Shown piece after piece: positions 15,401 to 47,414 of a stretch of 64,000 nucleotides of DNA. The notes beneath the pieces are model-generated. The model was given only the letters and a program-made list of their open reading frames with translations, was not told the DNA's origin and made no database searches. Source of the DNA: Ianthella basta (lineage: Eukaryota; Porifera; Demospongiae; Verongiida; Ianthellidae); contig OZ025874.1 in the NCBI GenBank assembly GCA_964019415.1, forward strand, positions 124,001 through 188,000, read 5' to 3'. Both the position numbers and the translations under genes were made by a program. Every line of letters begins with the position of its first letter. Position 1 is the first letter of the stretch.

Positions 15401-16570
15401 TGCCAAATCTTGCATAATCTTATATACCATGTCATATCTTGCCAAATCTTGCCTAATCTTACATTGTCATATCTTACCAAATCTTGCTTAGTCTTACCTT
15501 GTCATATCTTGCCAAATCTTGACAAATCTTATCTTGTCATATCTTGCCAAATCTTGCCAAATATTACCTTGTCATATCTTGCCAAATCTTGCCAAATCTT
15601 ACCTTGGCATATCTTACCAAATCTTGCCTAATCTTACCTTGTCAAATCTTGCCAAATCTTGCTGAATCTTTCCTTGTCATATCTTGCCAAATCTTGCCAA
15701 ATCTTACCTTGTCATATCTTGCCTAATCTTGTCAAATCTTACCTTGTCATATCTTGCCAAATCTTGCCTGATCTTACCTTGTCATATCTTGCCAAATCTT
15801 GCCAAGCCTTACCTTTAAGTTGTCATATCTTGCCAAATCTTGACTAATCTTACCTTGTCATATCTTGCCAAATTTTGCCAAATCTTACCTTGTCATATCT
15901 CGCCAAATCTTGCCAAATCTTACATTGTCATATCTTGCCAAATCTTGCCTAATCTTACCTTGTCATATCTTGCCAAATCTTACCAAATCTTACCTTGTCA
16001 TATCTTGCCAAATCTTGCCAAATCTTACCATGTCATACTTTGCCAAATCTTGCTTAATCTTACTTTTTCATATCTTGCCACATCTTGCTTAATCTTACCT
16101 TATCATATCTTGCAAAATCTTGCCAAATCTTACTTTGTCATATCTCGCCAAATCTTGCCAAATCTTGCCAAATCTTGCCAAATCTTACCTTGTCATATCT
16201 TCCCTACTCTTGCCAAATCTTACCTTCATATCTTACCAAGTTTTTCCTAAACTTAACTTAAGTTGTCATATCTTGCCTATACTTGCTTAATCTTACCTTG
16301 TCATATCTTGCCAAATCTTACAAAATATTACCTTGTCATATCTTGCCAAATCTTGCCTCATCTTACCTTGTCATATCTTGCCAAATCTTGCTTAATCTTA
16401 CCTTGTCATATCCTGCCAAATCTTACCATGTAATTTCTTGCCAAATCTTGCCTAATCTTACACTTTCATATCTTGCCAAATCTTGCTTAATCTTACCTTC
16501 TCATATCAAGCCAAATCTTGCCAAATCTTACCTTGTCATATTTGCCAAATCTTTCCAAATCTTATTTTAT
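9491..16570 (+). repeat. Tandem higher-order block, ~3.54 kb, two near-identical copies
   Basis: Copy 1 is about 9491-13030 and copy 2 about 13031-16570. Matching variant landmarks include ACTATCAATTTGTCAT at 9625 and 13162, CTTTAAGTTGTCAAATCTGG at 10850 and 14387, and the TATATTCTTACC string near 11300 and 14840. The offset is 3,537 bp. It becomes 3,541 bp after a 4-bp insertion in copy 2 near 15421 (TATATACCATG against TTACCATG). The offset is close to 101 units. Only scattered substitutions separate the copies, so this is one of the youngest large duplications in the window. Confidence 0.9.
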
Positions 16571-19500
16571 CATATCTTGCCAAATCTTGCCAAATATTAC
16601 CTTGTCATATCTTGCCAAATCTTGCCAAATCTTATCTTGGCATATCTTACCAAATCTTGCCTTATCTTACCTTGTCATATCTTGCCTAATCTTGCCAAAT
16701 CTTACCTTGTCATATCTTGTCAAATCTTGCCAAATCTTGCCAAATCTTACCTTGTCATATCTTCCCTACTCTTGCCAAATCTTACTTTCATATCTTACCA
16801 AGTTTTTCCCAAACTTACCTTAAGTTGTCATATCTTGCCTAAACTTTCTTAATCTACCTTGTCATATCTTGCCAAATCTTACCAAATATTACCTTGTCAT
16901 ATCTTGCCAAATCTTGCCTAATCTTACCTTGTCATATCTTGCCAAATCTTGCTTAATCTTACCTTGTCATATCTTGCCAAAGCTTACCATGTAATTTCTT
17001 ACCAAATCTTGCCTAATCTTACTTTTTCATATCTTGCCAAATCTTGCTTAATCTTACCTTCTCATATCAAGCCAAATCTTGCCAAATCTTACCTTGTCAT
17101 ATCTTGCCAAATCTTACCAAATCTTTCCATGTCATATTTTACCAAATCTTGCCTAATCTTACTTTTTCATATCTTGCCAAATCTTGCTTAATCTTACCTT
17201 GTCATATCTAGCCAAATCTTGCCAAATCTTACCTTGTCATATCTTGCCAAATCTTTCCTATTCTTACCTTGTCAAATCTTACCAAATCTTACTTATATTC
17301 TTACCTTCATATCTTGCCAAATCTTGCCAAATATTACCGTGTCATATCTTGCCAAATCTTGCCTAATCTTACCTTGGCATATCTTACCAAATCTTGCCTA
17401 ATCTTACCTTGTCATATCTTGCCTAATCTTGCCAAATCTTACGTTGTCATATCTTGCCAAATCTTGCCGAATGTTACCTTGTCATATCTTGCCAAATCTT
17501 CCCAAATCTTGCCTTGTCATTTCTTGCATAAACTTGCCAAATCTTACCTTGTCTTATCTTGCCAAATCCTGCCTGATCTTACCTTCTCATATCTTGCCAA
17601 ATCTTGCCAAGCCTTACCTTTAAGTTGTCATATTTTGCCAAATCTTGCCTATTCTTACTTTTTCATATCTTGCCAAATCTTGACTAATCTTACCTTGTCA
17701 TATCTCGTCAAATCTTGCCAAATCTTACATTGTCATATCTTGCCAAATCTTGCCTAATCTTACCTTGTCATATCTCGCCAAATCTTGCCAAATCTTACCT
17801 TGTCATATCTTACCAAATCTTGCCAATTCTTACCATGTCATATTTTGCCAAATCTTGCCTAATCTTACTTTTTCATATCTTGCCAAATCTTGCTTAATCT
17901 TACCTTGTCATATCTTGCCAAATCTTGCCAAATCTTACATTGTAATATCTTGCCAAATCTTTCCAATTCTTACCTTGTCATATCTTACCAAATCTTGCTT
18001 TTAATCTTTCCTTCATATCTTGCCAAATCTTGCCAAATCTTACCAAATATTACCTTCTCATATCTTGCCTAATCTTGCCAAATCTTACCTTGTCATATCT
18101 TGCCAAATCTTGCCTGATCTTAACTTGTCTTATATTGCCAAATCTTGCCAAGTCTTACCTTTAACTTATCATATCTTGCCAAATCTTGCCTAATCTTACT
18201 TTTCCATATCTTGCCAAATCTTGCTTAATCTTACCTTTGTCATATCTTGCCAAATCTTACCAAATCTTACTTTGTCATATCTCGCAAAATCTTGCAAAAT
18301 CTTGCCAAATCTTATCTTGTCATATCTTGCCTACTCTTGCCAAATCTTACCTTCATATCTTACCAAATCTTGCCTAAACCTACCTTGTCATATCTTGCCT
18401 AATCTTGCCAAATCTTACCTTGTCATATCTTGCCAAATCATTCCAATTCTTACCTTGGCATATCTTACCAAATCTTGCTTAATCTTACCTTCATAACTTG
18501 CCAAATCTTGCCAAATATTACCTTGTCATTTATTGCCAAATCTTGTCAAATCTTACCTTGTCATACCTTTCCAAATCTTACCTAATCTTACCTTATCATA
18601 TCTTGCCAAATCTTGCCAAATCTTACCTTGTCATATCTTGCCAAATCTTGCCAAATGTTGCCAAATCTTACCTTGTCATATCTTGCCTAATCTTGCCAAA
18701 TCTTACCTTGTCATATCTTGCCAAAATCTTGCCTGATCTTACCTTGTCATATCTTGCCAAATCTTGCTTAATCTTACCTTGTCATATCTTGCCAAATCTT
18801 GCCAAACATTACCTTGTCATGTCTTGCCAAATCTTGCTTAATCTTACCTTGTCATATCTTGCCAAATCTTGCCAAACTTTATCTTCTCATATCTTGCCAA
18901 ATCTTGCCTAATATTACCTTATCATATCTTGCCAAATCATGCCAAATCTTACCTTCTCATATTTTGCCAAATCTTGACTAATCTCACCTTGTCATATCTT
19001 GCCAAATCTTGCCAAATATTACCTTGTCATATCTTGCCAATTCTTGTCGAATCTTACCTTGTCATATCTTGCCAAATCTTGCCAAATATTCTCTTGTCAT
19101 ATCTTGCCAAATCTTGCCAAAACTTATCTTGTCATATCTTGCCAAATCTAGCCTAATCTTACCTTCATATCTTGCTTAATCTTGTCAAATCTTAACTTGT
19201 CATATCTTGCCAAATCTTGCCTAATCTTACTTTTTCATATCTAGCCAAATCTTGCTTAATCTTACCATGTCATATCTTGCCAAATCTTGCCAAATCTTAC
19301 CTTCAGTTGTCATATCTTGCAAAATCTTGCCTTATCTTACTTTTCATATCTTGCCAAATCTTGCTTAATCTTACCTTGTCTTATCTTGCCAAATCTTACC
19401 AAATCTTACCTTGTCATATCTCACCAAATCTTGCCTAATCTTGCCAAATCTTGACTAATCTTACCATGCCATATCTTGCCAAATCTTGCCAAATCTTACC

Positions 19501-20587
19501 TTGTCATATCTTGCCAAATCTTGCCAATTCTTACCTTGTCATATCTTACTCAATCTTGCTTAATCTTACCTTGTCATATCTTGCTAAATCTTTCCAATTC
19601 TTACCTTGTCATATCTTAAAATATCTTGCTTAATCTTATCTTCATATCTTGCCAAATCTTGCCCAATCTTATATATCTTGCCATATCTTGCCAAAGCTTG
19701 CCAAATATTACCTTGTCATATCTTGCCAAATCTTGCCCAATCTTATCTTGCCATATCTTGCCAAAGCTTGCCAAATATTACCTTGTCATATCTTGCCAAA
19801 TCCTGCCTATTCTTCCTTTTCGTATCTTGCCAAATCTTGCTTAATCATACCTTCTCATATCTTGCCAAATCTTGCCAAATCTTACCATGTCATATCTTGC
19901 CAAATCTTGCCGAATCTAACCTTGTCATATCTTACCAAATCATGCTTAATCTTACCTTGTCATATCTTGCCAAATCTTCCAAATCTTATCTTGTCATATC
20001 TTGCCAAATCTTGCTAATTATTACCTTGTCATATCTTGCCAAATCTTGCCAAATCTTACCTTGGCATATCCTACCAAATCTAGCCTAATCTTACCTTGTC
20101 ATATCTTGCCAAATCTTGCGAAATCTTACCTTGTCATATCTTTCCAAATCTTGCCGAATCTTACCATGTCATATCTTACTAAATTTTGCCAAATCTTGCC
20201 AAATCTTACCTTGTCATATCTTGCCTAATCTTGCCAAAACTTACCTTGTCATATCTTGCCAAATCTTGCCAAATTTTACCTTCTCATATCTTGCCAAATC
20301 TTGCCAATTCTTACCTTGTCATATCTTACCAAATCGTGCTTAATCTTACCTTGTCATATCTTGCTAAATCTTTCCACTTCTTACCTTGTCATATCTTAAA
20401 ATATCTTGCTTAATCTTATCTTCATATCTTGCCAAATCTTGCCCAATCTTATCTTGCCATATCTTGCCAAAGTATGCCAAATATTACCTTGTCATATCTT
20501 ACCAAATCTTGCCAAATCTTACCTTGTCATATCTTTCCAAATCTTGCCTAATCTTAATTACCTTATCATATCTTGCAAAATCTTACC

Positions 20588-21794
20588 GAATCTTACCTTG
20601 TTATATTTTACCAAATCTTGCCAAATCTTACCTTGTCATATCTTGCCTAATCTTGCCAAATTTTACCTTGTCATATCTTTCCAAATGTTGCCTGATCTTA
20701 CCTTATCATATCTTGCCAAATCTAGTCAACTCTTACCTTTAAGTTGTCATATCTTGCCAAATCTTGCCTATTCTTCCTTTTCGTATCTTGCCAAATCTTG
20801 CTTAATCATACCTTCTCATATCTTGCCAAATCTTGCCAAATCTTACCATGTCATATCTTGCCAAATCTTGCCGACTCTAACCTTGTCATATCTTACCAAA
20901 TCATGCTTAATCTTACCTTGTCATATCTTGCCAAATCTTGCCAAATCTTATCTTGTCATATCTTGCCAAATCTTGCCAAATATTACCTTGTCATATCTTG
21001 CCAAATCTTGCCAAATCTTACCTTGGCATATCCTACCAAATCTTGCCAAATCTTACCTTGTCATATCTTGCCAAATCTTGCGAAATCTTACCTTGTCATA
21101 TCTTTCCAAATTTTGCCGAATCTTACCTTGTCATATCTTACTAAATTTTGCCAAATCTTACCTTGTCATATCTTGTCTAATCTTGCCAAATCTTACCTTC
21201 TCATATCTTGCCAAATGTTGCCTGATCTTACCTTGTCATATCTTGCCAAATCTTGCTTAATCTTACTTTTTCATATCTTGCCAAATCTTGACTAATCATA
21301 CCTTGTCATATCTCGCCAAATCTTGCCAAATCATACCTTGTCATATCTTGCTAGATCTTGCCTAATCTTACCTTGTCATATCTTGCCAAATCTTGCCGAA
21401 TCTTACCTTGTCATATCTTACCAAATCTTGCCAAATCTTGCCAAATCTTACCTTGTCCTATCTTGCCAAATCTTTCCAATTCTTACCTTCTCATATCTTA
21501 CCAAATCTTGCTTAATTTTACCTTCATATCTGGCCAAATCTTCCAAATCTTATCCTGTCATATCTTGCCAAATCTTGCCAAATATTACCTTGTCATATCT
21601 TGCCAAATCTTGCCAAATCATACTTTGTCATATCTTGCTAAATCTTGCCTAATCTTACTTTGTCATATCTTGCCAAATCTTGCCGAATCTTACCTTGTCA
21701 TATCTTACCATATCTTGCCTAATCTTGCCATATCTTACCTTCTCATATCTTGCCAAATCTTGCCTGATCTTACCTTGTCATATCTTGCCAAATC
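20588..21794 (+). repeat. Copy of the block found inverted at ~32290-33872
   Basis: This stretch starts CCGAATCTTACCTTGTTATA and continues through a long specific order of variant units. Read on the minus strand, the sequence from 33872 leftward begins the same way and follows the same order to about 32290, with a few hundred extra bases inside. In original orientation the two would be head-to-tail neighbours. The match is the main clue to where the left inversion breakpoint fell. Confidence 0.8.
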
Positions 21795-21885
21795 AATCCA
21801 TCAATAGGGCTCCGGCCCCCCAGCCTCCTGAAACACTTTGGTGTAGAAGGCTGGTAGGCGTAATATCCAGTGATTAGCCTTTGTT
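21795..21885. other. 91-bp unidentified island at the left inversion breakpoint
   Basis: This is non-satellite sequence separating plus-oriented array (to 21794) from minus-oriented array (from 21886). It includes GGGCTCCGGCCCCCCAGCC and GGTGTAGAAGGCTGGTAGG. CCAGCCT and AGGCTGG can pair as an imperfect stem, with ACAC and GTGT pairing inside it. There is no terminal repeat, target duplication or poly(A), and I cannot assign it to an element, tRNA or gene. It may be filler DNA captured during break repair, or a remnant of an older insert. The right breakpoint carries nothing like it. Confidence 0.7.
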
Positions 21886-24800
21886 CAAGGTAAGATTTGG
21901 CAAGATTTGGCAAGATATGACAAGGTAGGACTAAGCAAGATTTGGCAAGATATGAAAAAGTAATATTAGGCAAGATTAGGCAAGATATGACATGGTAAGA
22001 TTTGGCAAGATTTGGCAAGATATGACAAGGTAAGATTAAGCTAGATTTGGTAAGATATGACAAGGTAAGATTTGGCAAGATTTGGCAAGATATGACAAGT
22101 TAAGATTTGGCAAGATTTGGCAAGATATGACAAGGTAAGATTAAGCAAGATTTGGCAAGATTTGAAAAAGTAAGATTAGGCAAGATTTGGCAAGATATGA
22201 CAAGGTAAGATTTAGCAAGATTTGGCATGATATGACAAGGTAAGGATAAGCAAGATTTGGAAAGATATGAAAAGTTAGATTAGGCAAAATTTGGCAAGAT
22301 ATGACAAGGTAAAATTAGGTAAGATTTGGCAAGATATGACAAGATAAGATTTGGCAAGATTTGGCAAGATATGACAAGGTAAAATTTGGCAAGATTTGGC
22401 AAGATATGACAAGGTAAGATTCGGCAAGATTTGGCAAGATATGACAAGGTAAGATTTGGTAAGATTAGGCAAGATATGACAAGGTAAGATTAGGCAAGAT
22501 TTGGTAAGATATGACAAGGTAAGATTTAGCAAGATTTGGCAAGATATGATAAGGTAATATTTGGCAAGATTTGGCAAGATCTGACAAGATAAGATTTGGC
22601 AAGATTTGGCAAGATATGACAAGGTAAGATTAAGAAAGATTTTGTAATATATGACAAGTTAAGATTTTGCAAGATGTGACAAGGTAAGATTCGGCAAGAT
22701 TTGGCAAGATATGACAAGGTAAGATTAGTTAAAATTTGGCAAGATCTGACAAGATAAGATTTGGCAAGATTAGGCAAGATTTGGTGAGATCTGACAAGGT
22801 AAGATTTGGCAAGATTTGGCAAGATTTGGCAAGATGTGACAAGGTAAGATTTGGCAAGATTTGGCAAGATATGACAAGGTAAGATTTGGCAAGATTTGGC
22901 CAGATATGAAAGAGTAAGATTTGGCAAGATTTGGTAAGATATGACAAGGTAAGATTTGGCAAGATTTGGCAAGATTTGGCGAGATATGACAAGATAAGAT
23001 TTGACAAGATTTGGCAAGATTTGGCAATATATGACAAGGTAAGATTTGGAAAGATTGGGCAAGATATGACAAGGTAAGATTTGGCAAGATTAGGCAAGAT
23101 TTGGAAACATATGACAAAGTAAGATTCGGAAAGATTTGGCAAGATATGACAAGGTAGAATTTGGCAAGATTAGGCAAGATATGACAAGGTTAGATTAGGC
23201 AAGATTTTGGCAAGATATGACAAGGTAAGATTAAGCAAGATTTGGTAAGATATGACAAGTTAAGATTTGGCAAGATTTGGTAAGATATGACAAGGTAAGA
23301 TTAGTCAAGATTTGGCAAGATTTGAAAAAGTAAGATTAGGCAAGATTTGGCAAGATATGACAAGGTAAGATTTGGCAAGATTTGGCATGATATGACAAGG
23401 TAAGGTTAAGCAAGATTTGGAAAGATATGGAAAAGTTAGATTAGGCAAAATTTGGCAAGATATGACAAGGTAAAATTAGGTAAGATTTGGCAAGATATGA
23501 CAAGATAAGATTTGGCAAGCATTGGCAAGATATGACAAGATAAAATTTGGCAAGATTTGGCAAGATATGACAAGGTAAGATTCGGCAAGATTTGGCAAGA
23601 TATGACAAGGTAAGATTTGGTAAGATTAGGCAAGATATGACAAGGTAAGATTAGGCAAGATTTGGCAAGATATGACAAGGTAAGATTTAGCAAGATTTGG
23701 CAAGATATGATAAGGTAATATTTGGCAAGATTTGGCAAGATATGACAACATTAGATTTGGCAAGATTTGGCAAGATATGACAAGGTAAGATTAAGCAAGA
23801 TTTGGTAATATATGACAAGTTAAGATTTTGCAAGATGTGACAAGGTAAGATTCGGCAAGATTTGGCAAGATATGACAAGGTAAGATTAGTTAAGATTTGG
23901 CAAGATCTGACAAGGTAAGATTTGGCAAGATTAGGCAAGATTTGGCGAGATCTGACAAGGTAAGATTTGGCAAGATTTGGCAAGATACGACAAGGTAAGA
24001 TTAAGCAGGATTTGGCAAGATATGAAAAAGTAAGATTTGGCAAGATGTGACAAGGTAAGATTTGGCAAGATTTGGCAAGATATGACAAGGTAAGATTTGG
24101 CAAGATTTGGCAAGATATGAATGAGTAAGATTTGGCAAGATTTGGCAAGATATGACAAGGTAAGATTTGGCAAGATTTGGCAAGATTTGGCGAGATATGA
24201 CAAGATAAGATTTGACAAGATTTGGCAAGATTTGGCGAGATATGACAAGGTAAGATTTAGAAAGATTTGGCAAGATATGACAAGGTAAGATTTGGCAAGA
24301 TTAGGCAAGATTTGGAAACATATGACAAAGTAAGATTCGGAAAGATTTGGAAAGATATGACAAGGTAGAATTTGGCAAGATTAGGCAAGATATGACAAGG
24401 TTAGATTAGGCAAATTTGGCAAGATATGAGAAGGTAAGATTAAGCAAGATTTTGTAAGATATGACAAGGTAAGATTTGGCAAGATTTCGTAAAATATGAC
24501 AAGGTAAGATTAGTCAAGATTTGTCAAGATATGACAAGGTAAGATTTGGCAAGATTAGGCAAGATTTGGCGAGATATGACAAGGTAAGATTTGGCAAGAT
24601 TTGGCAAGATATGACAAGGTAAGACTAAGCAAGATTGGGCAAGATATGAAAAAGTTAGATTAGGCAAGAATTGGCAAGATATGACAAGGTAAGATTTGGC
24701 AAGATTTGGCAAGATATGGCAAGGTAAGATTTGGCAAGATTTGGCAAGATATGACAAGGTAAGATTTGGCAAGATTTGGCAAGATATGAAAAAGTAAGAT

Positions 24801-27800
24801 TAGGCTAGATTTGGCAAGATAGGACAAGGTAATATTTGGCAAGATTAGGCAAGATTTAGCGAGATATGACAAGGTAAGACTTGGCAAGATTTGGCAAGAT
24901 ATGACGAGGTAAGATTAAGCAAGATTAAGCAAATTTTAGCAAGATATGACAAGGTAAGATTTGGCAAGATTTGTTAAGATATGACAAGGTATTATGTTGC
25001 AAGATTTTGCAAGATATGACGAGGTAATATTTGGCAAGATATGGCAAGATATGACAAGGTAATATTTGGCAAGATTTGGCAAGTTATGACAAGGTAAGAT
25101 TTGACAAGATTTGGAAAGATATGGCAAGGTAAGATTCGGCAAGATATGGCAAGATTAGGCAAGATATGACAAGGTAAGATTAAGCAAGATTTGGCAAGAT
25201 ATGAAAAGGTAAGATTTGGCAAGATTTGGCAAGGAATGACAAGGTAATATTTGGCAAGATTAGGCAAGATAAGAAAAAGTGAGATTAAGCAAGATTTGGC
25301 AAGATATGACAAGGTAAGATTAGTCAAGATTTGGCAAGATATGACAAGGAAAGATTAAGCAAGATTTGGTAAGAAATGACAAGTTAAGATTTGGCAAGAT
25401 TTGGCAAGATATGACAAGGTAAGATTAGGCAAGATCTGGCAAGATATGACAAGGTAAGATTTGGCAAGATTTGGCAAGATATGCAAAAAGTAAGATTTGG
25501 CAAGATTAGGCAAGATATGACAAGGTAAGATTAGTCAAGATTTGGCAAGATATGACAAGGTAAGATTTAACAAGATTAGGTAACATATGACAAGGAAAGA
25601 TTTGGCAAGATTTGGCAAGATATGACAAGGTAAGATAAAGTAAGATTTGGCAAAATATGAAAAAGTAAGATTAGGCAAGATTTGGCAAGATATGACAAGA
25701 TAAGATTTGGCAAGATTTGGCAAGATATGAAGGTAAGATTAAGAAAGATTTGGTAAGATATGACAAGGTAAGAATTGGAAAGATTTGGCAAGATATGACA
25801 AGGTAAGATTAAGCAAGATTTGATAAGATATGACAAGGTAAGATTTGGCAAGATTTGGCAAGATATGACAAGGTAAGATTTGGCAAGATTTGGCAAGATA
25901 TGGCAAGATTTGAAAAAGTGAGATTAAGCAAGATTTGGCAAGATATGACAAGGTAAGATTAGTCAAGATTTGGCAAGATATGACAAGGAAAGATTAAGCA
26001 AGATTTGGTAAGAAATGACAAGTTAAGATTTGGCAAGATTTGGCAAGATATGACAAGGTAAGATTAGGCAAGATTTGGCAAGATATGACAAGGAAAGATT
26101 AAGCAAGATTTGGTAAGAAATGACAAGTTAAGATTTGGCAAGATTTGGCAAGATATGACAAGGTAAGATTAGGCAAGATTTGGCAAGATATGACAAGGTA
26201 AGATTTGGCAAGATTTGGCAAGATATGCAAAAAGTAAGATTTGGCAAGATTAGGCAAGATATGACAAGGTAAGATTAGTCAAGATTTGGTAAGATATGAA
26301 AAAGTAACATTAGGTAAGATTTGGCAAGATATGATAAGGTAAGATTTGGCAAGACTTGGCAAGATATGACAAGGTAAGATTAAGCAAGATTTGGTAAGAT
26401 ATGACAAGGTAAGATTTGGCAAGATTTGGCAAGATATGCAAAAGTAAGATTTGGCAAGATTAGGCAAGATATGACAAGGTAAGATTAGTCAAGATATGGC
26501 AAGATATGACAAGGTAAGATTTAACAAGATTAGGCAGCATATGACAAGGTAAGATTTGGCAAGATTTGGCAAGATATGACAAGGTAAGATGAAGTAAAAT
26601 TTGGCAAAATATGAAAAAGTAAGATTAGGCAAGATTTGGCAAGATATGACAAGGTAAGATTTGGCAAGATTTGGTTAGATATGACAAGGTAAGATTAAGC
26701 AAGATTTAGCAGTATATGAAAAGTAAGATCTGGCAAGATTTGGCAAGGCATGACAAGGTAAGATTTAGCAAGATTTGGCAAGATATGACAAGGTAAGATT
26801 TGGCAAGATTAGGCAAGATATGACAACTAAAGGTAAGATTAGGCAAGATTTCGCAAGATATGACAAGATAAGATTTGGCAAGATTTGGCAAGATATGAAG
26901 GTAAGATTAAGCAAGATTTGGTAAGATATGACAAGGTAAGAATTGGAAAGATTTGGCAAGATATGACAAGGTAAGATTAAGAAAGATTTGATAAGATATG
27001 ACAAGGTAAGATTTGGCAAGATTTGGCAAGATATGACAAGGTAAGATTTGGCAAGATTAGGCAAGATATGGCAAGGTAAGATTAGTCACGATTTGTCAAG
27101 ATATGACAAGGTAAGATTTAGCAAGATTAGGCAAGATTTGGCGAGTTATGACAAGGTAAGATTTGGTAAGATTTGGCAAGATATGACAAGGTAAGATTAA
27201 GCAAGATTTGGCAAGATATGAAAAGTAAGATAAGGCAAGATTTTGCAAAATAAGACAACTGAAGGTAAGATTTGGCAAGATTTTGCAAGATATGACATGG
27301 TAAGATTAAGCAAGATTTGGCTAGATATGAAAAAGTAAGATTAGGCAAGATTTGGCAAGATATGACAAGTTAAGATTTGGCAAGATTAAGCAAGATATGA
27401 AGGTAAGATTAGGCAAGATTTGGCAAGATATAACAAGATAAGATTTGGCAAGATTTGGCAAGATATGACAAGGGAATATTTGGCAAGATTTGGTAAGATA
27501 TGACAAGGTAAGATTCGGCAAGAATTGGCAAGATATAACAAGGTAATATTTGGCAAGATTTGGCAAGATATTACAAGGTAAGATTAGTCAAGATTTGGCA
27601 AGATATGACAAGGTAAGATTTGGCAAGATTTGGCAAGATATGATAAGGTATTATTAAGCAAGATTTGACAAGATATGAGAAGATAAAATTTGGCAAGATT
27701 TGGCAAGATATGACAAGGTAAGATTGAGCAAGATTTGGCAAGATATGACAAGGTAATGTTTGGCAAGATTAGGCAAGATATGAATAAGTAAGATTAAGGA

Positions 27801-29302
27801 AGATTTCGTAAGATATGACAAGGTAAGCTTTTGGAAGATATGACATGGTAAGATTATGCAAGATTTGGCAAGATATGAAAAAGTAAGATTAGGCAAGATT
27901 TGGCAAGATATTATAAGGTAAGATTTGGCAAGATTTGGCAAGATATGACAAGGTAAGATTTGGCAAGATTTGGCAAGATATGAAAGAGTAAGATTTGGCA
28001 AGATTTGGCAAGATATGAGAAGGTAACATTAAGCCATATTTGGCTAGATATGAAAAGGAAGAATAGGCAAGATTTGGCAAGATATGACAACTTATAGGTA
28101 AGACTTGGCAAGATTTGGCAGGATATGACAAGGTAAGATCAGGCAAGATTGGACAAGATTAGGCAAGATATGACAAGGTAAGATTTGGCCAGATTTGGCA
28201 AGATTTGGTAAGATATGACAAGGTAAGATTCGGCAAGATTTGGCAAGATATGTCAAGGTAAGATTAGGCAAGATTTGGCAAGATATGACAAGGTAAGATT
28301 TGGCAAGATTTGGCAAGATATGACAAGATAAGATTTGGCAAGATTTGGCAAGATATGAAGGTAAGATTAAGCAAGATTTGGTAAGATATGACAAGGTAAG
28401 AATTGGAAAGATTTGGCAAGATATGACAAGGTAAGATTTGTCAAGATTTGGCAAGATATGAGAAGGCAAGATTAAGCAAGATTTGACAAGATATGAAAAG
28501 TAAGATTAGGCAAGATTTGGCAAGATATTACATGGTAAGTATTGGCAAGATATGACAGGGTAAGATTTGGCAAGATTTGGAAAGATATGACAAGGTAAGA
28601 TTAGGCAAGATTTGGCAAGATATGACAAGGTAAGATTTGGCAAGATTTGGTGAGATGTGATAAGGTAAGATTAGTCAAAATTTGGCAAGATATGAAAAAG
28701 TAAGAATAAGCAAGATTTGGCAAGATAAGACAACGTAAGATCAGGCAAGATTTTGCAAGTTATGACAAGGTAAGATTTGGCAAGATTAGGCAAGATATGA
28801 CACGGTAAGATTTGACAAGATTTGGCCAGATTTGGCAAGATATGACAAGGTAAGATTCGGCAAGATTAGGCAAGAAATGACAAGGTATGATTTGGCCAGA
28901 TTAGGCAAGATATGACAAGGTAAGATTAGGCAAGATTTGGTAAGATATGCCAAGGTAAGATTAGTCAAGATTAGGCAAGATATGACAAGGTAATATTTGG
29001 CAAGATTTGGCAAGATATGACAAGATAAGATGTGGCAAGATTTGGCAAGATATGATAAGGTAAGATTAAGCAAGATTTGGTAAGATATGACAAGGTAAGA
29101 TTAGGTAAGATTTCGTAAGATAAGACAAGGTAAGCTTTGGAAGATTTGACAAGGTAAGATTAGTCAAGATTTGGCAAGATATGACAAGGTAAAAGTTGGC
29201 AAGATTTGGCAAGATATGACAAGGTAATTTTTGGCAAGATTTGGCAAAATATGACAAGGTGAGATTAAGCAAGATTTGGCAAGATATGAAAAAGTAAGAT
29301 TA

Positions 29303-29345
29303 GGCGGCGGTCACACTACGGCGAAAATGACGGCGACGGTGACGG
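29303..29345 (+). repeat. Left terminal inverted repeat of Harbinger element
   Basis: Begins GGCGGCGGTCACACTACGG and continues through GCGAAAATGACGGCGACGG. It pairs with 32005-32047 with one mismatch in 43 positions (A against G in the AAAATGAC stretch). TTA lies immediately outside it. Confidence 0.95.
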
Positions 29346-29400
29346 CGGCGGTTACGGTGACGTTTCCGGAACGTGGCGGGTCGGTCACACTGCTACTATT
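29346..29400 (+). repeat. Left subterminal region: GACGGT-type motifs and a degenerate inner TIR copy
   Basis: CGGCGGTTACGGTGACG follows the terminal repeat and continues its GACGGTGACGG theme. At 29375-29396, GGCGGGTCGGTCACACTGCT is a weak second copy of the terminal GGCGGCGGTCACACTAC. Clustered short motifs just inside the ends are candidate binding sites for the element's own proteins; this role is inferred. Confidence 0.6.
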
Positions 29401-29432
29401 ACCGAAAGATTATTTGTATAGACAAAGAGAAA

Positions 29433-30758
29433 ATGGCGGACATCGTGCTCGTGTGCATTTACCTTTTTTCCTTGTTTCAGCTTGGCGGCGGCTACGCTCA
29501 TCGCAGGAATCGACTTCGCAGGACCCTATTTACTCTTCTTCGCCAGCGCTGCTTGCGGAAAAGTCGGGAATCGCTGTTACGGCTGCTTTTTGTGCCGTCA
29601 CTCTTGGCTCAGCCCGCTTTCCAGGATATCATCCGTTCTCTTCGGGCTCCACGACGATTTTGGGCAGCGCCAAGAGACCATGGTTTTTGGGAAGAAGATG
29701 TTTGCGACATGTGGCGAAGGATGGGACGAAGATATCCGGACTGGGAGGAGAGCCAATACCTACAGCATTTCCGCATGTCTAAGGATACTTTCTGGTATCT
29801 GTCCCAGACGTATGGCAAGTACTTGGAGAAGGAAACCACGCATCTAAGGCTAGCACTGCCTCATGCAAAGAGACTAGTCATTGTGTTACATTGGCTAGCT
29901 CAAGCTAGTAGTTTTGCTCAACTTGCTGCATTGTATGCGATTGGGAAGTCCACAGTTGTTGCTGTGGTACACCAGGGTGTAGATGTACTTCGTGCAAAGT
30001 TTGTACCTGAGGCCATCCGTTTTCCCACTGGATCAGAACTAGATCAAGTCATGGTAGATTTTGAGGCGCTGTGTGGTTTGCCTTGTTGTGGTGGTGCGCT
30101 GGATGGCACTTTCATGCCCATCAGGAAGCCAACAGATTATGGAGACACCTATTTTTGTTACAAACGCTTCTGCGCCATTATTGTACTAGGATGTGTTGAT
30201 GCTAGGGGTATATTCACTTATGTTAATGCGGGTCGACCTGGCTCTGTTGGAGACTCGTACACTTATCGTCACAGTACCTTATGGCAGAAGATCCGTAGCG
30301 GTGATTGGCTTGCACACTCACCAAAAACAATTGAAGGTGTGCAAGTGAGTCCGTTTCTTGTTGCTGATGCAGCATTTCCATTGTCTGCAACATGCATGAA
30401 GTGCTACGAAGCAAGTGATTTGCCCCAAAAGCACAGCTTTAACTACAGCTTGATCCGAACAAGACGCGTTGTCGAGCAAGCATTTGGTAGGCTCAAAGGA
30501 CGGTGGAAAATTATGGACGGCCAATGTAAAATCAATGACCCAGTGTTTGTGAGGCAGGTGGCGATGGTCTGCTGTGCTTTGCACAATGTATGTGAAAGGC
30601 ACCAGTGCCCATTTGAACTAGGATGGCTTCCAGATGCTAGTGCTTATGCAGACTCCATACCAGCCAATTTACAAGCACATGTGGTGATTGGATCAGCAGC
30701 AAGTGTCAGGGATGCAATTGCCAAATACATCCATCGCCACAGGCCTGCTCCACACTGA
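29433..30758 (+). CDS. Harbinger transposase (HARBI1-like DDE nuclease)
   Basis: Predicted 441-residue transposase that would cut and rejoin the element ends in the nucleus. The C-terminal half is a DDE_Tnp_4-type catalytic domain. D224 lies in GALDGTF, D274 in GRPGSVGDSYTYRHS and E348 in RRVVEQAFGRLKGRW. D312 sits in the conserved LVADAAFP motif. Residues about 75-125 (RRFWAAPRDHGFW to FRMSKDTFWYL) match the usual Harbinger N-terminal block, followed by a helix-turn-helix-like stretch at about 145-190. I chose the ATG at 29433 because AAAATGGCGG is a good initiation context. The frame stays open upstream to 29373 without an ATG. Residues 4-17 are oddly hydrophobic, and TTTTTTCCTTGTTTCAG ending at 29480 looks like a splice acceptor, so the true first exon may differ. 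No internal stop or frameshift is seen. The next gene is convergent, 186 bp away. Confidence 0.92.
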   Translation: MADIVLVCIYLFSLFQLGGGYAHRRNRLRRTLFTLLRQRCLRKSRESLLRLLFVPSLLAQPAFQDIIRSLRAPRRFWAAPRDHGFWEEDVCDMWRRMGRRYPDWEESQYLQHFRMSKDTFWYLSQTYGKYLEKETTHLRLALPHAKRLVIVLHWLAQASSFAQLAALYAIGKSTVVAVVHQGVDVLRAKFVPEAIRFPTGSELDQVMVDFEALCGLPCCGGALDGTFMPIRKPTDYGDTYFCYKRFCAIIVLGCVDARGIFTYVNAGRPGSVGDSYTYRHSTLWQKIRSGDWLAHSPKTIEGVQVSPFLVADAAFPLSATCMKCYEASDLPQKHSFNYSLIRTRRVVEQAFGRLKGRWKIMDGQCKINDPVFVRQVAMVCCALHNVCERHQCPFELGWLPDASAYADSIPANLQAHVVIGSAASVRDAIAKYIHRHRPAPH

Positions 30759-30944
30759 TTCGAACAGCTGTTTTAATTATTAGTGAACTGTAGTTGTACT
30801 TGTCACAGAATAATAATTGACAATGGTACATGTGTCTGCCAGTAATTTTGTAGATGAAATACAACATGGATGCGCTCGCTAATGATGCAATACAAGTGTG
30901 CACCAATATAGTAGGGAGTAAACAATCAAAGTATTAACTCATGC
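30759..30944. other. Spacer between convergent Harbinger genes
   Basis: A 186-bp AT-rich gap between the two stop codons must hold the 3' ends of both transcripts. On the minus strand ATTAAA (plus coordinates 30772-30777) could serve the Myb-like gene. On the plus strand only weak variants such as AATACA and AATATA are present, and no AATAAA is seen. No other gene is present. Confidence 0.6.
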
Positions 30945-31841
30945 TCACTGATTGTCCTTCTTTTCAAACAGTTTTTTCAAGAGCTCAGCTTGAAATGCTT
31001 GATTCTGCTGCATCATGTCCATTCGAAATTGTGCGTTTTGCTGCTGCAGCCTTGCTGATATGTCAGCTTCCAATTTTGCCCTGTCTGCTTCCATTTTCAG
31101 CTGGAACTTCATTGCATCCTCCTGCATTTTTGCATCATGTGCCATCTGCCTTTCCTGTGCTTTCTCCTGCATGTCTGACAATGCCAGCAAGAACTGGGTG
31201 GCTGCAGTCCCTTTCCCTTTCTTCTGTCCCACTCTGGCAACAGTGGGTGTCTCATTTCCCTTTTTCTTCTTACTAGGTGGCAGTGGAATGTCATCTTCAT
31301 CCTCTTCACTATCACTGTCTACCACACTCCTGGATGGGGGCCTTGAAACATCAGGGGTACTGGTAGCAGTGCCAGTAACTTCAGGTTCATCACCAGCTAC
31401 AGACCTTGCAATAGTACTGGGAGTGGGAGTCACGGAGTCATCGACTGCCCCAGGGCCCAAAGATGGATGGTCTTTAAAGCGCTCATGGAATGTTTTGAAG
31501 TTAGGCCAGCTACTCTCAGCTGCTTCGAGGTCTATTTCTGCATCCTCTTCAGTATACTCTTTGCCAGTTTCTCCTTTTTTCTGGTAAGTGGCATACATCT
31601 TCTTTCCGTTCTTCAGAATTGTGTCAATTTTATTGCAGATCGCCTTTTCAGTGTACACATTCGTCCTCCCCAGCTCCTCCGTCAAGTAGGCGTTCAGTCT
31701 CGTCGTTGCAATTGCTTCTTTCTTCTTCCGCGTTATCATTTTGCCACTAAACTCCTCTATGATGTCGGCCCAGATGTCGATCAGTCTTCGTTCGATGTCA
31801 GGTGTCCATTTGGCTCTCGTTTTCTTGCTTCCAGACGCCAT
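30945..31841 (-). CDS. Harbinger accessory Myb/SANT-like DNA-binding protein
   Basis: A 298-residue protein transcribed against the transposase gene. In characterised Harbinger elements the Myb-like partner binds element ends and helps bring transposase to the nucleus and DNA; the same role is inferred here. Residues about 9-120 form a Myb/SANT-like domain, beginning AKWTPDIERRLIDIWADIIE and with aromatic or Trp residues at W12, W24 and W112. A Ser/Thr/Pro-rich linker follows. Next come an acidic run (DSDSEEDEDD, about 176-184) and a basic KKKK cluster at 191-194 that may act as a nuclear signal. The C-terminal third (about 215-297) is rich in Gln, Met, Lys and Glu and looks like a long coiled coil, suited to partner binding. 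The start is ATG at 31839-31841 and the stop is TGA at 30945-30947. The frame is intact. Confidence 0.9.
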   Translation of the reverse strand: MASGSKKTRAKWTPDIERRLIDIWADIIEEFSGKMITRKKKEAIATTRLNAYLTEELGRTNVYTEKAICNKIDTILKNGKKMYATYQKKGETGKEYTEEDAEIDLEAAESSWPNFKTFHERFKDHPSLGPGAVDDSVTPTPSTIARSVAGDEPEVTGTATSTPDVSRPPSRSVVDSDSEEDEDDIPLPPSKKKKGNETPTVARVGQKKGKGTAATQFLLALSDMQEKAQERQMAHDAKMQEDAMKFQLKMEADRAKLEADISARLQQQNAQFRMDMMQQNQAFQAELLKKLFEKKDNQ

Positions 31842-32004
31842 CGTTCGCTAGATCGCTCACAGAACACGGTTCACACCTTCGCCTCTATCGTCGCCGTCAC
31901 CGTCACCGTGGCGACCGCTGTCACGGCGACGGTCACGGTACGGCAGGGTCACGGTCGCGGTCCCGGTAAGTTAGTCGTAGTGTGACTGCAAAAACGTGAC
32001 GTCA
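31842..32004 (-). repeat. Right subterminal region: CACCGT/GACGGT motifs and a degenerate inner TIR copy
   Basis: Upstream of the Myb-like start lies a GC-rich stretch with many copies of GTCACCGTCACC / CGGTCACGG-type hexamers at about 31885-31965. GTCGTAGTGTGAC at 31974-31986 echoes the terminal GCCGTAGTGTGACC. The mirror arrangement at the left end suggests functional subterminal sites. The same stretch probably includes the promoter of the Myb-like gene. Confidence 0.6.
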
Positions 32005-32047
32005 CCGTCACCGTCGCCGTCACTTTCGCCGTAGTGTGACCGCCGCC
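32005..32047 (-). repeat. Right terminal inverted repeat of Harbinger element
   Basis: Ends CGCCGTAGTGTGACCGCCGC plus a final C. Read on the minus strand it matches the left repeat at 42 of 43 positions. TAA lies immediately outside, so the outermost TTAGGCGGCGGTC / GACCGCCGCCTAA pair is itself a perfect inversion. Confidence 0.95.
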
Positions 32048-33865
32048 TAAGGCAAGATTTGGCAAGATATGACAAGGTATCATTAGGCAAGATTTGGCAA
32101 GTTATGACAAGATAAAATTTGGCAAGATTTGGCAAGATATGACAAGGTAACATTTGGCAAGATTTGGCAAGATATGAGAAAGTAGGATTAAGCAAGATTT
32201 GGCAAGATTTGAAAAGGAAGAATAGGCAAGATTTGGCAAGATATGACAACTTAAAGGTAAAACTTGGCAAGATTTGGCAAGATATGACAAGGTAAGATCA
32301 GGCAAGATTTGGCAAGATATGAGAAGGTAAGATATGGCAAGATTAGGCAAGATATGGTAAGATATGACAAGGTGAGATTCGGCAAGATTTGGCAAGATAT
32401 GACAAGGTAAGATTAGGCAAGATTTAGCAAGATATGACAAGGTATGATTTGGCAAGATTTGGCAAGATATGACAAGGTAATATTTGGCAAGATTTGGCAA
32501 GATATGACAGGATAAGATTTGGAACATTTGGCAAGATATGAAGTTAAAATTAAGCAAGATTTGGTAAGATATGAGAAGGTAAGAATTGGAAAGATTTGGC
32601 AAGATATGACAAGGTAAGATTTGGCAAGATTTGGCAAGATTTGGTAAGATATGACAAGGTAAGATTCGGCAAGATTTGGCAAGATATGACAAGGTAAGAT
32701 TAGGCAAGATTTAGCAAGATATGACAAGGTATGATTTGGCAAGATTTGGCAAGATATGACAAGGTAATATTTGGCAAGATTTGGCAAGATATGACAGGAT
32801 AAGATTTGGCAAGATTTGGCAAGATATGAAGGTAAAATTAAGCAAGATTTGGTAAGATATGAGAAGGTAAGAATTGGAAAGATTTGGCAACATATGACAA
32901 GGTAAGATTTGGCAAGATTTGGCAAGATATAACAAGGTAAGATTAAGTTAGATTTGGCAAGATATGAAAAAGTAAGATTAGGCAAGATTTGGCAAGATAT
33001 GACATGGTAAGATTTGGCAAGATTTGGCAAGATTTGACAGGGTAAGATTTGGCAAGATTTGGCAAGATATGACAAGGTAAGATTAGGCAAGATTTGGCAA
33101 GATGTGATAAGGTAAGATTTGGCAAGATTTGGCGAGATATGACAAGGTATGATTAGTCAAGATTTGGCAAGATATGAAAAAGTAAGATTAAGCAAGATTT
33201 GGCAAGATATGACAAGGTAAGATCAGGCAACATTAGGCAAGATATGAGAAGGTAAGATTTGGCAAGATTAGACAAGATATGACAAGGTAAGATTTGGCAA
33301 GATTTGGCAAAATTTAGTAAGATATGACAAGGTAAGATTCGGCAAGATTTGGAAAGATATGACAAGGTAAGATTTCGCAAGATTTGGCAAGATATGACAA
33401 AATAAGATTTGGCAAGATTTGGTAGGATATGCCAAGGTAAGATTTGGCAAGATTTGGCAAGATATGACAAGGTAATATTTGGCAAGATTTGGCAAGATAT
33501 GACAAGATAAGATTTGGCAAGATTTGGCAAGATATGACAAGGTAAGATTAAGCATGATTTGGTAAGATATGACAAGGTTAGAGTCGGCAAGATTTGGCAA
33601 GATATGACATGGTAAGATTTGGCAAGATTTGGCAAGATATGAGAAGGTATGATTAAGCAAGATTTGGCAAGATACGAAAAGGAAGAATAGGCAAGATTTG
33701 GCAAGATATGACAACTTAAAGGTAAGAGTTGACTAGATTTGGCAAGATATGATAAGGTAAGATCAGGCAACATTTGGAAAGATATGACAAGGTAAAATTT
33801 GGCAAGATTAGGCAAGATATGACAAGGTAAGATTTGGCAAGATTTGGTAACATATAACAAGGTAA

Positions 33866-33879
33866 GATTCGGTCTCGCC
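33866..33879. other. Right inversion junction
   Basis: Minus-oriented array ending GATTCGG (33872) abuts plus-oriented TCTCGCC (33873) with no filler. The nearest self-complementary segments, AAGGTAAGATT on the left and AATCTTACCTT on the right, lie about 30-40 bases apart, so the junction could fold as a hairpin. Confidence 0.9.
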
Positions 33880-34682
33880 AAAACTGGCCTAATCTTGCCA
33901 AATCTTACCTTGTCATATCTTGACAAATCTTGACTAATCTTACCTTGTCATATCTTGCCAAATCTTGCCAAATCTTACCTTGTCATAACTTACCAAATCT
34001 TGCTTAATCTTACCTTCTCATATCTTGCCAAATCTTGCCTAATCTTACCTTGTCATATCTTGCCTAATCTTGCCAAATTCTACCTTGTCATATCTTGCCA
34101 AATCTTTCCTAATCTAACTTTGCCATATGTTTCCAAATCTTGCCTAATCTTGCCAAATCTTACCTTGTCATATCTTGCCAAATCTTACCAAATCTTACCT
34201 TGTCATATCTCGCCAAAACTTGCCAAATCTTATCTTGTCATATCTCGCCAAATCTTGCCAAATCTTGCCAAATCTTACCTTATCATATCTTGCCAAATCT
34301 TGCCAAATCTTACTATTTCATATCTTGCCAAATCTTACCTTGTCATATCTTGCCAAAGCTTGCCAAATCTTACCTTGTCATATCTTGCCAAATCTTACCT
34401 AATCCTACTTTATCATATCTTGCCAAATCCTGCTTAATCTTACCTTGTCATATCTTGCCAAATCTTGCCAAATCTTACCTTGTCAGATCTCGCAAAATCT
34501 TGCTTAATCTTTCCAAATCTTACCTTGTCATATCTTGCCAAATCTTGCCAAATCTTACCTTGTCATATCTTGCCAAATCTTGCCTAATCTTACTTTTTCA
34601 AATCTTGCCAAATCTTGACTAATCTTACCTTGTCATATCTTACCAAATCTTGCCAAATCTTACCTTGTCATATCTTACAAAA

Positions 34683-37600
34683 TCTTGCTTAATCTTACCT
34701 TGTCATATCTTGCCAAATCTTGCCTAATCTAACCTTGTCATATCTTGCCTAATCTTGCCAAATTCTACCTTGTCATATCTTGCCAAATCTTTCCGAATCT
34801 TACTTTGTCATATGTTTCCAAATCTAGCTTAATCATACCTTGTCATATCTTGCCAAATCTTGCCAAATCTTACCTTGTCATATCTTGCCAAATCTTGCCT
34901 AATATTACTTTTTCATATCTTGCCCAATCTTGCTTAGTCTTACCTTGTCATATCTTGCCAAATCTTGCCAAATCGTACCTTGTCGTATCTCGCCAAATCT
35001 TGCCTAATCTTGCCAAATCTTACCTTGTCATATCTTGACAAATCTTGACTAATCTTACCTTGTCATATCTTACCAAATCTTGCCAAATCTTACCTTGTCA
35101 TATCTTACCAAATCTTGCTTAATCTTACCTTCTCATATCTTGCCAAATTTGCCTAATCTAACCTTGTCATATCTTGCCTAATCTTGCCAAATTCTACCTT
35201 GTCATATCTTTCCAAATCTTTCCGAATCTTACTTTGTCATATGTTTCCAAATCTTGCCTAATCTTGCCAAATCTTACCTTGTCATATCTTGCCAAATCTT
35301 TCTAAATCTTACCTTGTCATATCTCGCCAAATCTTGCCAAATCTTGTCTAATCTTATCTTGTCATATCTCGCCAAATCTTGCCAAATCTTGCCAAATCTT
35401 ACCTTGTCATATCTTGCCAAATCTTGCCAAATCTTACTCATTCATATCTTGCCAAATCTTGCCAAATCTTACCTTGTCATATCTTGCCAAATCTTGCCAA
35501 ATCTTACCTTGTCACAACTTGCCAAATCTTACTTTTTCATATCTTGCCAAATCCTGCTTAATCTTACCTTGTCGTATCTTGCCAAATCTTGCCAAATCTT
35601 ACCTTGTCAGATCTCGCCAAATCTTGCCTAATCTTGCCAAATCTTACCTTGTCAGATCTTGCCAAATCTTAACTAATCTTACCTTGTCATATCTTGCCAA
35701 ATCTTGCCGAATCTTACCTTGTCACATCTTGCAAAATCTTAACTTGTCATATATTACCAAATCTTGCTTAATCTTACCTTGTCATATCTTGCCAAATCTT
35801 GCCAAATCTTATCTTGTCATAACTTGCCAAATCTTGCCAAATATTACCTTATCATATCTTGCCAAATCTTGCTAAATCTTACCTTGTCATATCTTGCCAA
35901 ATCTTGCCTAATCTTACCTTGTCATATCTTCCCTAATCTTACCAAATCTTACCTTGTCATATCTTGCCAAATCTTGCCGAATCTTACCTTGTCATATCTT
36001 GCCAAATCTTGCCAAATTTTACCTTGTCATATCTTGCCAATACTTGCCAAATCTTATCTTGTCATATCTTGCCAAATCTTACCTAATTTTACCTTGTCAT
36101 ATCTTGCCAAATCTTGCCTAATCTAACTTTTTCATATCTTTCCAAATCTTGCTTAACCTTACCTTGTCATATCATGCCAAATCTTGCCAAATCTTACCTT
36201 GTCATATCTTGCCAAATCTTGCCTAATCTTACTTTTTCAAATCTTGCCAAATCTTGACTAATCTTACCTTGTCATATCTTACCAAATCTTGCCAAATCTT
36301 ACCTTGTCATATCTTACCAAATCTTGCCAAATCTTACCTTGTCATATAATACAAAATCTTTCTTAATCTTACCTTGTCATATCTTGCCAAATCTTGCCAA
36401 ATCTTATCTTGTCATATCTTGCCAATTCTTGCCAAATATTACCTTATCATATCTTGCCAAATCTTGCTAAATCTTACCTTGTCATATCTTATATACCAAA
36501 TCTTGCCTAATCTTACCTTGTCATATCTTGCCTAATCTTACCAAATCTTACCTTGTCATATCTTGCCAAATCTTGCCGAATCTTACCTTGTCATATCTTG
36601 CCAAATCTTGCCAACTTTTACCTTGTCATATCTTGCCAAATCTTGCCAAATCTTATCTTGTCATATCTTGCAAAATCTTACCTAATTTTACCTTGTCATA
36701 TCTTGCCAAATTTTGCCTAATCTAACTTTTTCATATCTTTCCAAATCTTGCTTATCCTTACCTTGTCATATCATGCCAAATCTTGCTAAATCTTACCTTG
36801 TCATATCTTGCCAAATCTTGCCTAATCTTACTTTTTCAAATCTTGCCAAATCTTGCTTAATCTTACCTTGTCATATCTTGCCAAATCTTGCCAAATCTTA
36901 ACTTGTCATATCTTGCCAAATCTTGCCAAATCTTACCTTGTCATATCTTACCAAATCTTGCCAAATCTTACCATGTCATATCTTGCCTAATCTTGCCTAA
37001 TATTACTTTTTCATATCTTCCAAATCTTGCTTAGTCCTACCTTGTCATATCTTGCCAAATCTTGCCAAATCTTACCATGTCATATCTTGCCTAATCTTGC
37101 CTAATATTACTTTTTCATATCTTGCCAAATCTTGCTTAGTCCTACCTTGTCATATCTTGCCAAATCTTGCCAAATCTTATCTTGTCGTATCTCGCCAAAT
37201 CTTGCCTAATCTTGCCATATCTTACCTTGTCATATCTTGACAAATCTTGACTAATCTTACCTTGTCATATCTTGCCAAATCTTGCCAAATTCTACCTTGT
37301 CATATCTTGCCAAATCCTTCCGAATCTTACTTTGTCATATGTTTCCAAATCTAGCTTAATCATACCTTGCTACCTTGTTATCCAAATCTTGCCTAATCTT
37401 GCCAAATCTTATCTTGTCATATCTTGCCCAATCTTTCCAAATCTTACCTTGTCATATATCGCCAAATCTTGCCAAATCTTGTCAAATCTTATCTTGTCAT
37501 ATCTCGCCAAATCTTGCCAAATCTTGCCAAATCTTATCTTGTCATATCTTACCAAATCTTGCCAAATCTTACTCTTTCATATCTTGCCAAATCTTGCCAA

Positions 37601-41960: not shown

Positions 41961-42278
41961 ATCTTGCCAAATCTTAACTTGTCATATCTTGCCAAATCTT
42001 GCCAAATCTTAACTTGTCATATCTTACCAAATCTAGCTTAATCTTACCTTGTCATATCTTGCCAAATCTTGCCAAATCTTACCATGTCATATCTTGCCTA
42101 ATCTTGCCTAATATTACTTTTTCATATCTTGCCAAATCTTGCTTAGTCCTACCTTGTCATATCTTGCCAAATCTTGCCAAATCTTACCTTGTCGTATCTC
42201 GCCAAATCTTCCCTAATCTTGCCAAATCTTACCTTGTCATATCTTGACAAATCTTGACTAATCTTACCTTGTCATATC

Positions 42279-47114: not shown

Positions 47115-47128
47115 CAGGGGCGGGGGAA
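47115..47128 (+). repeat. Left inverted end of the 852-bp element
   Basis: CAGGGGCGGGGGAA, directly preceded by TGCCA (47110-47114). Confidence 0.85.
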
Positions 47129-47414
47129 GGTTGGCACATTTGCTCAGGCCATTTGGAATGCCAAGACATCATTTAAGCAATACTACGTAGCTACTCATCT
47201 TGATGGTGTAGCTACACAACAGACAGGATTATAGCAAGATAGACAAAAGGGGAGGGGGAACGGGTACATAGTTTAAGTTCGTGTCCCTAGGAAAATTTTG
47301 GGGGTTATGTCCTCCAAGATTGGTTCTGGTGTATTCTGTGCGGTCCAAAAGCACTTTTCTTTCATACATTAACTGCACATTAATGTCATATTTTTACTGC
47401 AATTTGAAAACATT

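What the first reader, a model, noticed from the sequence alone, without database searches (positions are those of the whole stretch)
21886..33872. A clean 12-kb inversion inside the array; turning it back restores register
Joined in original orientation, the right boundary reads CCAAATCTTACCTTG + TCTCGCCAAAA. This matches the local order at 42180-42260 and 46870-46960 with only 5 bp (TCGTA) missing. The left boundary reads GCCAAATC + CCGAATCTTACC, missing only TTG. Such agreement at both ends is hard to get by chance and supports one two-break inversion with end joining.
Basis: seen in the sequence. Interest (0 to 1): 0.7.

Follow-up and report, generated by a model that had tools for sequence, protein, structure and literature searches.

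The report
Satellite inversion with retroelement at junction
A 12-kb piece of a repeat array really has been flipped, but 1.2 kb is also present as a reversed second copy at its ends and the tail of a small ribozyme-carrying jumping element sits in one junction, which may record how the flip happened.

Summary
The window lies in a ~100-kb satellite array of an unnamed 209-Mb eukaryotic genome. Bases 21886-33872 run opposite to both flanks. At the right breakpoint, turning the block back joins two pieces that are adjacent elsewhere: 14 of 46 listed copies of the block's left end have a listed right-flank partner, all 14 exactly 5 bases away. The restored 400-bp join matches a paralogue at 97.8%; the best of 100 random joins reached 95.0%. 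The left breakpoint does not simply turn back. The left flank's last 1209 bases (20586-21794) are an inverted copy (1196 of 1209 identical, plus 10- and 383-bp indels) of the block's right end (33872 to 32271). The "missing TTG" therefore measures a join that probably never existed (88.6%, below the random median). Between left flank and block lie 3 filler bases and the last 88 bases of a dispersed element whose fuller copies carry a type I hammerhead ribozyme. Best reading: one inversion with a staggered (or two-chromatid/replicative) left break; retroelement insertion at the right break possibly started it. No reads were available.

The parts
1..64000 (+). ~35-bp satellite array, C-rich strand on +; on this contig the dense array runs about C7:95-194 kb, with TE islands
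   Evidence: Tandem Repeats Finder row 1-64000, 1810 copies of 35 bp; strand map of C7:1-258000
20586..21794 (+). U: last 1209 bp of the left flank; inverted duplicate of the block's right end
   Evidence: 1196 identities, 13 mismatches, indels of 10 and 383 bp against rc(32271-33872)
21795..21797 (+). 3-nt filler AAT at the left junction; with its surroundings it makes ATCAAT..ATCAAT, possibly templated from the adjoining element
   Evidence: sequence; templating is inference
21798..21885 (+). 88-bp 3' end (5'-truncated) of a dispersed hammerhead-ribozyme retroelement; its 3' terminus TTTGTT abuts the inverted block
   Evidence: 44 matches genome-wide, self included; 40 others near full length at 98-100%, 3 partial; boundary and TSDs in other copies; Rfam Hammerhead_1 in fuller copies; no TSD found here
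21886..33872 (-). inverted satellite block, 11,987 bp
   Evidence: strand word counts; right-junction paralogues
32271..33872 (-). U': the copy of U inside the block, starting at the right breakpoint
   Evidence: U-to-Y continuity at 32271 has 97%/96% relatives on C19/C20
33873..34072 (+). right flank that restored contiguity places next to rc(21886-22085), with 5 bp lost
   Evidence: 14 of 46 listed copies paired, all at spacing 5; three spacers read, more; 97.8% vs max 95.0% of 100 random joins
29303..32047 (.). PIF/Harbinger-like DNA transposon inside the block (DDE_Tnp_4 ORF 29373-30758 +, second ORF 30945-31841 - without a Pfam match); a passenger
   Evidence: Pfam PF13359 E=8.8e-29; 7 other full-length 99-100% matches to its first 800 bp; ends bear the same GGCGGCGGTCACAC inverted repeat; the name Harbinger is from recall

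Best explanation
Bases 21886-33872 are a true in-place inversion in a one-orientation satellite array. The ancestral order was X-U-Y...Z-(5 bp)-B. One break lay at Z|TCGTA|B and lost 5 bp. The other, at the U segment, left U on both sides, either by 1.2-kb staggered nicks with fill-in, by breaks at the two ends of U on two chromatids, or by template switching. Joining X-U to Z and U'-Y to B inverted the block and left U as an inverted duplication at its ends. The 3' end of a hammerhead-ribozyme retroelement sits on the Z end, so a likely order is: element cDNA was primed at Z by target-primed reverse transcription, was 5'-truncated after 88 nt, and its free end was joined to the X-U end with 3 filler bases. 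Shown: strand switch, right-side contiguity, inverted duplication, element fragment, no TSD, 5-bp loss. Inferred: a single event, and the element as initiator rather than as an earlier insertion or filler. The confidence given is for the inversion with duplication in one event; the element as initiator is rated separately under the novel case.
For: Right junction: restored join 97.8% in the C7 array, 100 random joins median 91.7% and maximum 95.0%; 14 of 46 listed copies paired, all at exactly 5 bp. Left junction: U and U' align end to end, 1196/1209. That such an alignment stops at the junctions is partly forced by the strand flip; the informative part is that X does not match U's end nor Y U's start at this level (about 92%), so the breakpoint is a sharp duplication boundary. 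Only 1.1% (2-bp tolerance) or 2.1% (5 bp) of array positions are such boundaries. Element: all 17 rows (15 distinct copies, window included; 3 short rows had been dropped) have CA after TTTGTT; satellite background for CA is 7.1%. Five of 8 dispersed 3' ends show 12-15-bp TSDs that contain that CA; the window copy has none.
Against: U and U' are not identical: 13 mismatches and a 383-bp indel, so either the event is not recent or U was already duplicated. U-to-Y scores only 92.0% inside the C7 array, no better than random joins; its support comes from C19 and C20, and no genome-wide random-join null was run. In 8 of the 17 rows (7 distinct copies) the unit is internal and runs on as CAACCTAGCC or nearly so, so the fragment could be an internal piece that happens to share CAA with the satellite. 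Eight other -to-+ switches have no element at the junction, and the one other +to- junction read (L064) has none, so no association is shown. The C7-right block has the same U/U' geometry only at background level (90.7% over 525 bp). No reads or second haplotype were seen.
Confidence: 0.68

Rival explanations
1. Tandem duplication first: U had been tandemly duplicated, and a later simple two-break inversion happened to break exactly between the copies. The first reader's turn-back is then literally right.
For: Recent local duplications are common in this array (232 sharp start positions in 98.9 kb, this junction's own included); U and U' differ by 1.1% plus indels.
Against: Needs the break to hit the duplication boundary (1.1% of positions within 2 bp). 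The U|U' join is 3 bp out of register, unlike a homologous unequal exchange.
Confidence: 0.17
2. The element was an earlier ordinary insertion at Z, and an unrelated inversion later broke inside it, losing its 5' part, its second TSD copy and the TCGTA. (Compatible with the inverted duplication; a rival only to the element as initiator.)
For: An ordinary target context (CA) at its 3' end; a dispersed family with 40 other near-full-length matches at 98-100%.
Against: Requires loss of about 17 or more bases (second TSD copy plus TCGTA) and of the element's remainder; no remnant is visible at the right junction.
Confidence: 0.3
3. Assembly artefact: a false flip of a repeat contig.
For: A long tandem array is a hard place to assemble; reads were not available.
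Against: A false flip would not be expected to put an 88-bp element end at the junction, nor an inverted duplication with 13 mismatches and indels.
Confidence: 0.07
4. Inverted insertion: a block from elsewhere was inserted between A and B rather than inverted in place.
For: Satellite blocks seem to move between contig ends: one strand-switch junction is shared by C7 right and C22 left.
Against: Both block ends match the opposite flanks, as an inversion demands; the direct A-to-B join scores 88.8%, below the random median.
Confidence: 0.04

Closest known systems
Staggered-break inversions with inverted duplications (Drosophila subobscura O4, O8; PMC5080602, passages read)
   Same: Inversion with inverted copies, at its ends, of a sequence from one ancestral breakpoint; duplication from only one of the two breakpoints, as reported for O8.
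   Different: Here inside a satellite array, only 12 kb long, with a retroelement end in the junction; no uninverted chromosome was seen.
L1-mediated rearrangements in cancer genomes (PMC7058536, passages read)
   Same: A very short 5'-truncated element end bridging a rearrangement (a 34-bp L1 in one deletion); model of cDNA joining a second, distant break; short insertions at the 5' junction of L1-mediated deletions.
   Different: The passages read describe deletions, duplications, translocations and fold-back inversions from L1 in tumours; here a balanced inversion in an assembled genome with a hammerhead element.
Metazoan non-LTR retrozymes with type I hammerheads (PMC7229834, passages read)
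   Same: Type I hammerhead at Rfam gathering score, a few hundred bp, dispersed, TSDs longer than 4 bp.
   Different: Those are described as tandem repeats of low GC; tandem arrangement and circular RNA were not tested here, and several copies here carry inverted copies of a ~90-bp end unit.

Membership tests
Staggered-break inversion | Inverted duplication at the breakpoints | tested here: met
   U/U', 1196 of 1209, reaching both breakpoints
Staggered-break inversion | Duplicated segment is single-copy in the uninverted arrangement | tested here: inconclusive
   No uninverted chromosome available; only paralogues support X-U and U-Y
Retroelement-mediated (TPRT-type) rearrangement | Intact 3' end joined to one break, 5'-truncated end joined to the other | tested here: met
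   3' terminus at 21885; cut at 21798, where 15 of the 16 other rows continue inward with CACTGGTTG or CACTGGTCG and the sixteenth differs
Retroelement-mediated (TPRT-type) rearrangement | No TSD around the fragment although the family makes TSDs | tested here: met
   5 of 8 dispersed 3' ends have 12-15-bp TSDs, window copy none
Retroelement-mediated (TPRT-type) rearrangement | Element arrived in the same event | not testable with these tools
   Needs an uninverted haplotype
Metazoan type I hammerhead retrozyme | Type I hammerhead motif in fuller copies | tested here: met
   RF00163 at 38.7 bits (gathering 34) in L031, L035, L038; 29.6 bits in L040; none listed for L032 or L033 (six element loci searched, plus L001)
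Metazoan type I hammerhead retrozyme | Tandem copies and circular RNA | not tested
   No RNA data; tandem arrangement not surveyed
Inversion by ectopic recombination between inverted repeats | Inverted homologous repeats at both sites before the event | tested here: not met
   With the block turned back all counted satellite words in the window lie on one strand; the element was found at one junction only

The most novel reading that the evidence does not exclude
A hammerhead-ribozyme retroelement started the inversion: its reverse transcription at one nick in the array produced a cDNA end that was joined to a second, staggered break 12 kb away. That would be a natural, sequence-resolved case of a tiny non-autonomous retroelement reshaping strand orientation in satellite DNA near a chromosome end.
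Probability: 0.42. Interest if true: 0.6.

Novelty: new variant of a known kind. Interest (0 to 1): 0.45.

Why it matters
Breakpoints inside satellite arrays are hard to resolve because the units look alike. Here paralogous blocks and a foreign 88-bp tag fix both breakpoints and reveal an inverted duplication, so the way strand switches arise in satellite arrays becomes testable. If the element started the event, small ribozyme-bearing retroelements would join L1 as agents of rearrangement, outside tumours.

Tried and rejected

The element as a terminal-inverted-repeat DNA transposon: first thought because copies occur in inverted pairs; given up when 12-15-bp TSDs, a fixed 3' end and a hammerhead were found. 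The pattern itself required CA after GTT, so that call is no independent test of the CA context; (BLAST ends) are.

The block's Harbinger-like element as cause: rejected; it lies inside the block, 1.8 kb from the nearest breakpoint, and has near-identical copies elsewhere.

Same structure at the C7-right inverted block (about 9,470,636-9,481,010): comparing L063 with L064 (the two 4.7-kb junction stretches, not the whole block), no inverted match of 97% or more appeared among rows of 90% or more. The best, 90.7% over 525 bp, ends at the -to-+ junction and 35 bp short of the other and has the geometry of U/U', but its identity is no higher than random joins reach. So the duplication is not shown to be general. 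Eight other -to-+ junctions were read (L063, L065-L071, six of them as 301-bp stretches only); at all eight the printed junction is satellite to satellite. The +to- type, where the element sits here, was read at one other place only (L064).

Papers: searches. One search found 59 papers with two of its terms and listed 10; those 10 had no occurrence of 'inversion breakpoint'; the other 49 were not seen. This is no proof of absence. Passages were seen in PMC7229834, PMC5080602, PMC7058536, PMC2603318 and PMC12368964 (the last also as outline and abstract); the passages of PMC2603318 gave no insertion-coupled inversion, but its whole text was not read. Ranz et al. 2007 is known to me by recall and by citation in PMC12368964.

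Full report
Setting. The window is C7:124001-188000 of an unnamed 209-Mb genome in 96 contigs. Apart from a few inserted elements it is one satellite with a basic period of about 35 bp. On this contig the dense array runs from about 95 to 194 kb from the contig start. The same satellite lies near the ends of several other contigs, and hits also occur inside C3. The species was not identified.

Observation. Of six satellite words per strand, 21886-33872 holds none of the C-strand set and 1201 of the G-strand set; the rest of the window holds 6568 and none. Within this block a Harbinger-like DNA transposon (DDE_Tnp_4, E=8.8e-29) occupies 29303-32047.

Right breakpoint. Turned back, the block's left end lies against 33873. 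This pair is contiguous elsewhere: C7:164700-167665 matches the restored 3-kb join at 93.1% and C7:169392-171114 at 97.8% over 1.73 kb, while the other listed spanning matches lie at 85-88% (best 25 of 1449 shown). I set the 46 listed copies of the block's left end with identity of 97% or more against 34 of the listed right-flank rows. Fourteen copies, on seven contigs, have a partner within 60 bp, and in all fourteen the two halves are separated by exactly five bases; 32 copies have no partner among those rows. Both lists are cut off. Three of the 32 (C23, L006-L008) were read and continue in the same way with TCGTA. In one search three spacers were read: TCGTA twice, CCGTA once. With 100 random joins of array pieces, the best spanning paralogue had a median of 91.7% and a maximum of 95.0%; 50 real contiguous points had a median of 97.0%; the restored right join had 97.8%. 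The right half of the claim is therefore well beyond chance, with a loss of five bases.

Left breakpoint. Direct alignment shows why. The left flank 20586-21794 (U) and the reverse complement of 32271-33872 (U') are copies of each other: 1196 identities, 13 mismatches and two indels of 10 and 383 bp. U ends at the left breakpoint and U' begins at the right breakpoint. An alignment of inverted copies must stop where the strand flips, so that alone proves little. What counts is that the high identity does not run on in the turned-back array: tiles just beyond U and U' find only about 92%, so the breakpoint is a sharp boundary of a single local duplication. Such boundaries cover 1.1% of array positions at 2-bp tolerance and 2.1% at 5 bp. 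What followed U before the event can be read inside the block: GCCAAATC-TTGCCAAG, a continuity with relatives at 97% on C19 and 96% on C20, though only 92.0% within the C7 array. What preceded U (X) is contiguous with U in relatives at 96% on C4, C19 and C15.

The element. Between U and the block lie AAT and 88 bases (21798-21885) that are not satellite. They give 44 matches in the genome, the window included: 40 others near full length at 98-100% and 3 partial. In fuller copies they form the 3' end of an element of a few hundred bases that carries a type I hammerhead ribozyme (RF00163, 38.7 bits against a gathering score of 34, in three of the six element loci searched; below gathering in a fourth; none listed in two). 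All 17 rows examined (15 distinct copies, the window's included) carry CA after the terminal TTTGTT or TTCGTT; in 8 rows (7 copies) the unit is internal and continues CAACCTAGCC or nearly so. Five of eight dispersed 3' ends have target-site duplications of 12-15 bp that contain this CA, so CA belongs to the target. In the window the element also ends at TTTGTT followed by CA, but no duplication was found, and its 5' side is cut where most other copies continue.

Mechanism. A satellite of uniform direction offers no inverted repeats for homologous inversion. Inverted duplication at the breakpoints is the mark of staggered breaks reported for Drosophila inversions (PMC5080602, passages). Breaks on two chromatids or template switching would give the same product, and I cannot tell these apart. 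The element's 3' end lies on the Z end, where target-primed reverse transcription would have begun, and its truncated end is joined with three filler bases to the far break. [quoted passage not shown] This step is inference. An earlier insertion cut by a later inversion would need more losses but is not excluded.

Generality. The -to-+ type of switch was read at eight other places (seven pointed out, one found by probing); none has an element at the printed junction. The junction on the right end of C7 (L063) and that on C22 (L066) read the same in the stretch printed around the switch, and two on C3 (L069, L070) share most of theirs, so some switches appear to have been copied between or within chromosomes. 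The two junction stretches of the C7-right block show a match of the U/U' geometry only at background identity (90.7% over 525 bp). Among the junctions read, the window's is the only one with an element end.

Limits. No reads, no second haplotype and no species name were available.

Noticed in passing
L063 (C7:9,470,631/636) and L066 (C22:~123,660): Two contig ends share the same -to-+ strand-switch junction letter for letter in the stretch printed, so an inversion junction seems to have travelled between chromosome ends.
   Followed up: partly
L069 (C3:~12,759,440) and L070 (C3:~12,821,680): Two strand switches 62 kb apart carry the same junction core (AAGATTTGCCCAATCTTAC), suggesting duplication of an inverted segment.
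   Followed up: no
L064, C7:9,481,010-9,481,019: A +to- switch centred on a near-perfect short palindrome (CTTACCTTGT/GACAAGGTAAG), with an inverted match of 94% over 962 bp nearby: a fold-back-like junction.
   Followed up: partly
window 47114-47967: An ~850-bp dispersed element (ends CAGGGGC...GCCCTG) inserted in the array; 43 other matches at 78-99%, some of them pieces of one copy.
   Followed up: partly
window ~50350-51287: Element with inverted ends ACGCATGTGGGACATGTCC inserted in the array.
   Followed up: no
C7:194-228 kb (L022-L026): Beyond the dense array the satellite words continue at lower density, first on + and then, from about 208 kb, on the opposite strand: perhaps an older, decayed inversion.
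   Followed up: no
contig ends: In many listed hits the C-rich strand is on + near contig starts and on - near contig ends, so the G-rich strand often points to the chromosome end; C22 and parts of C15 and C7 right depart from this. Not counted systematically.
   Followed up: partly
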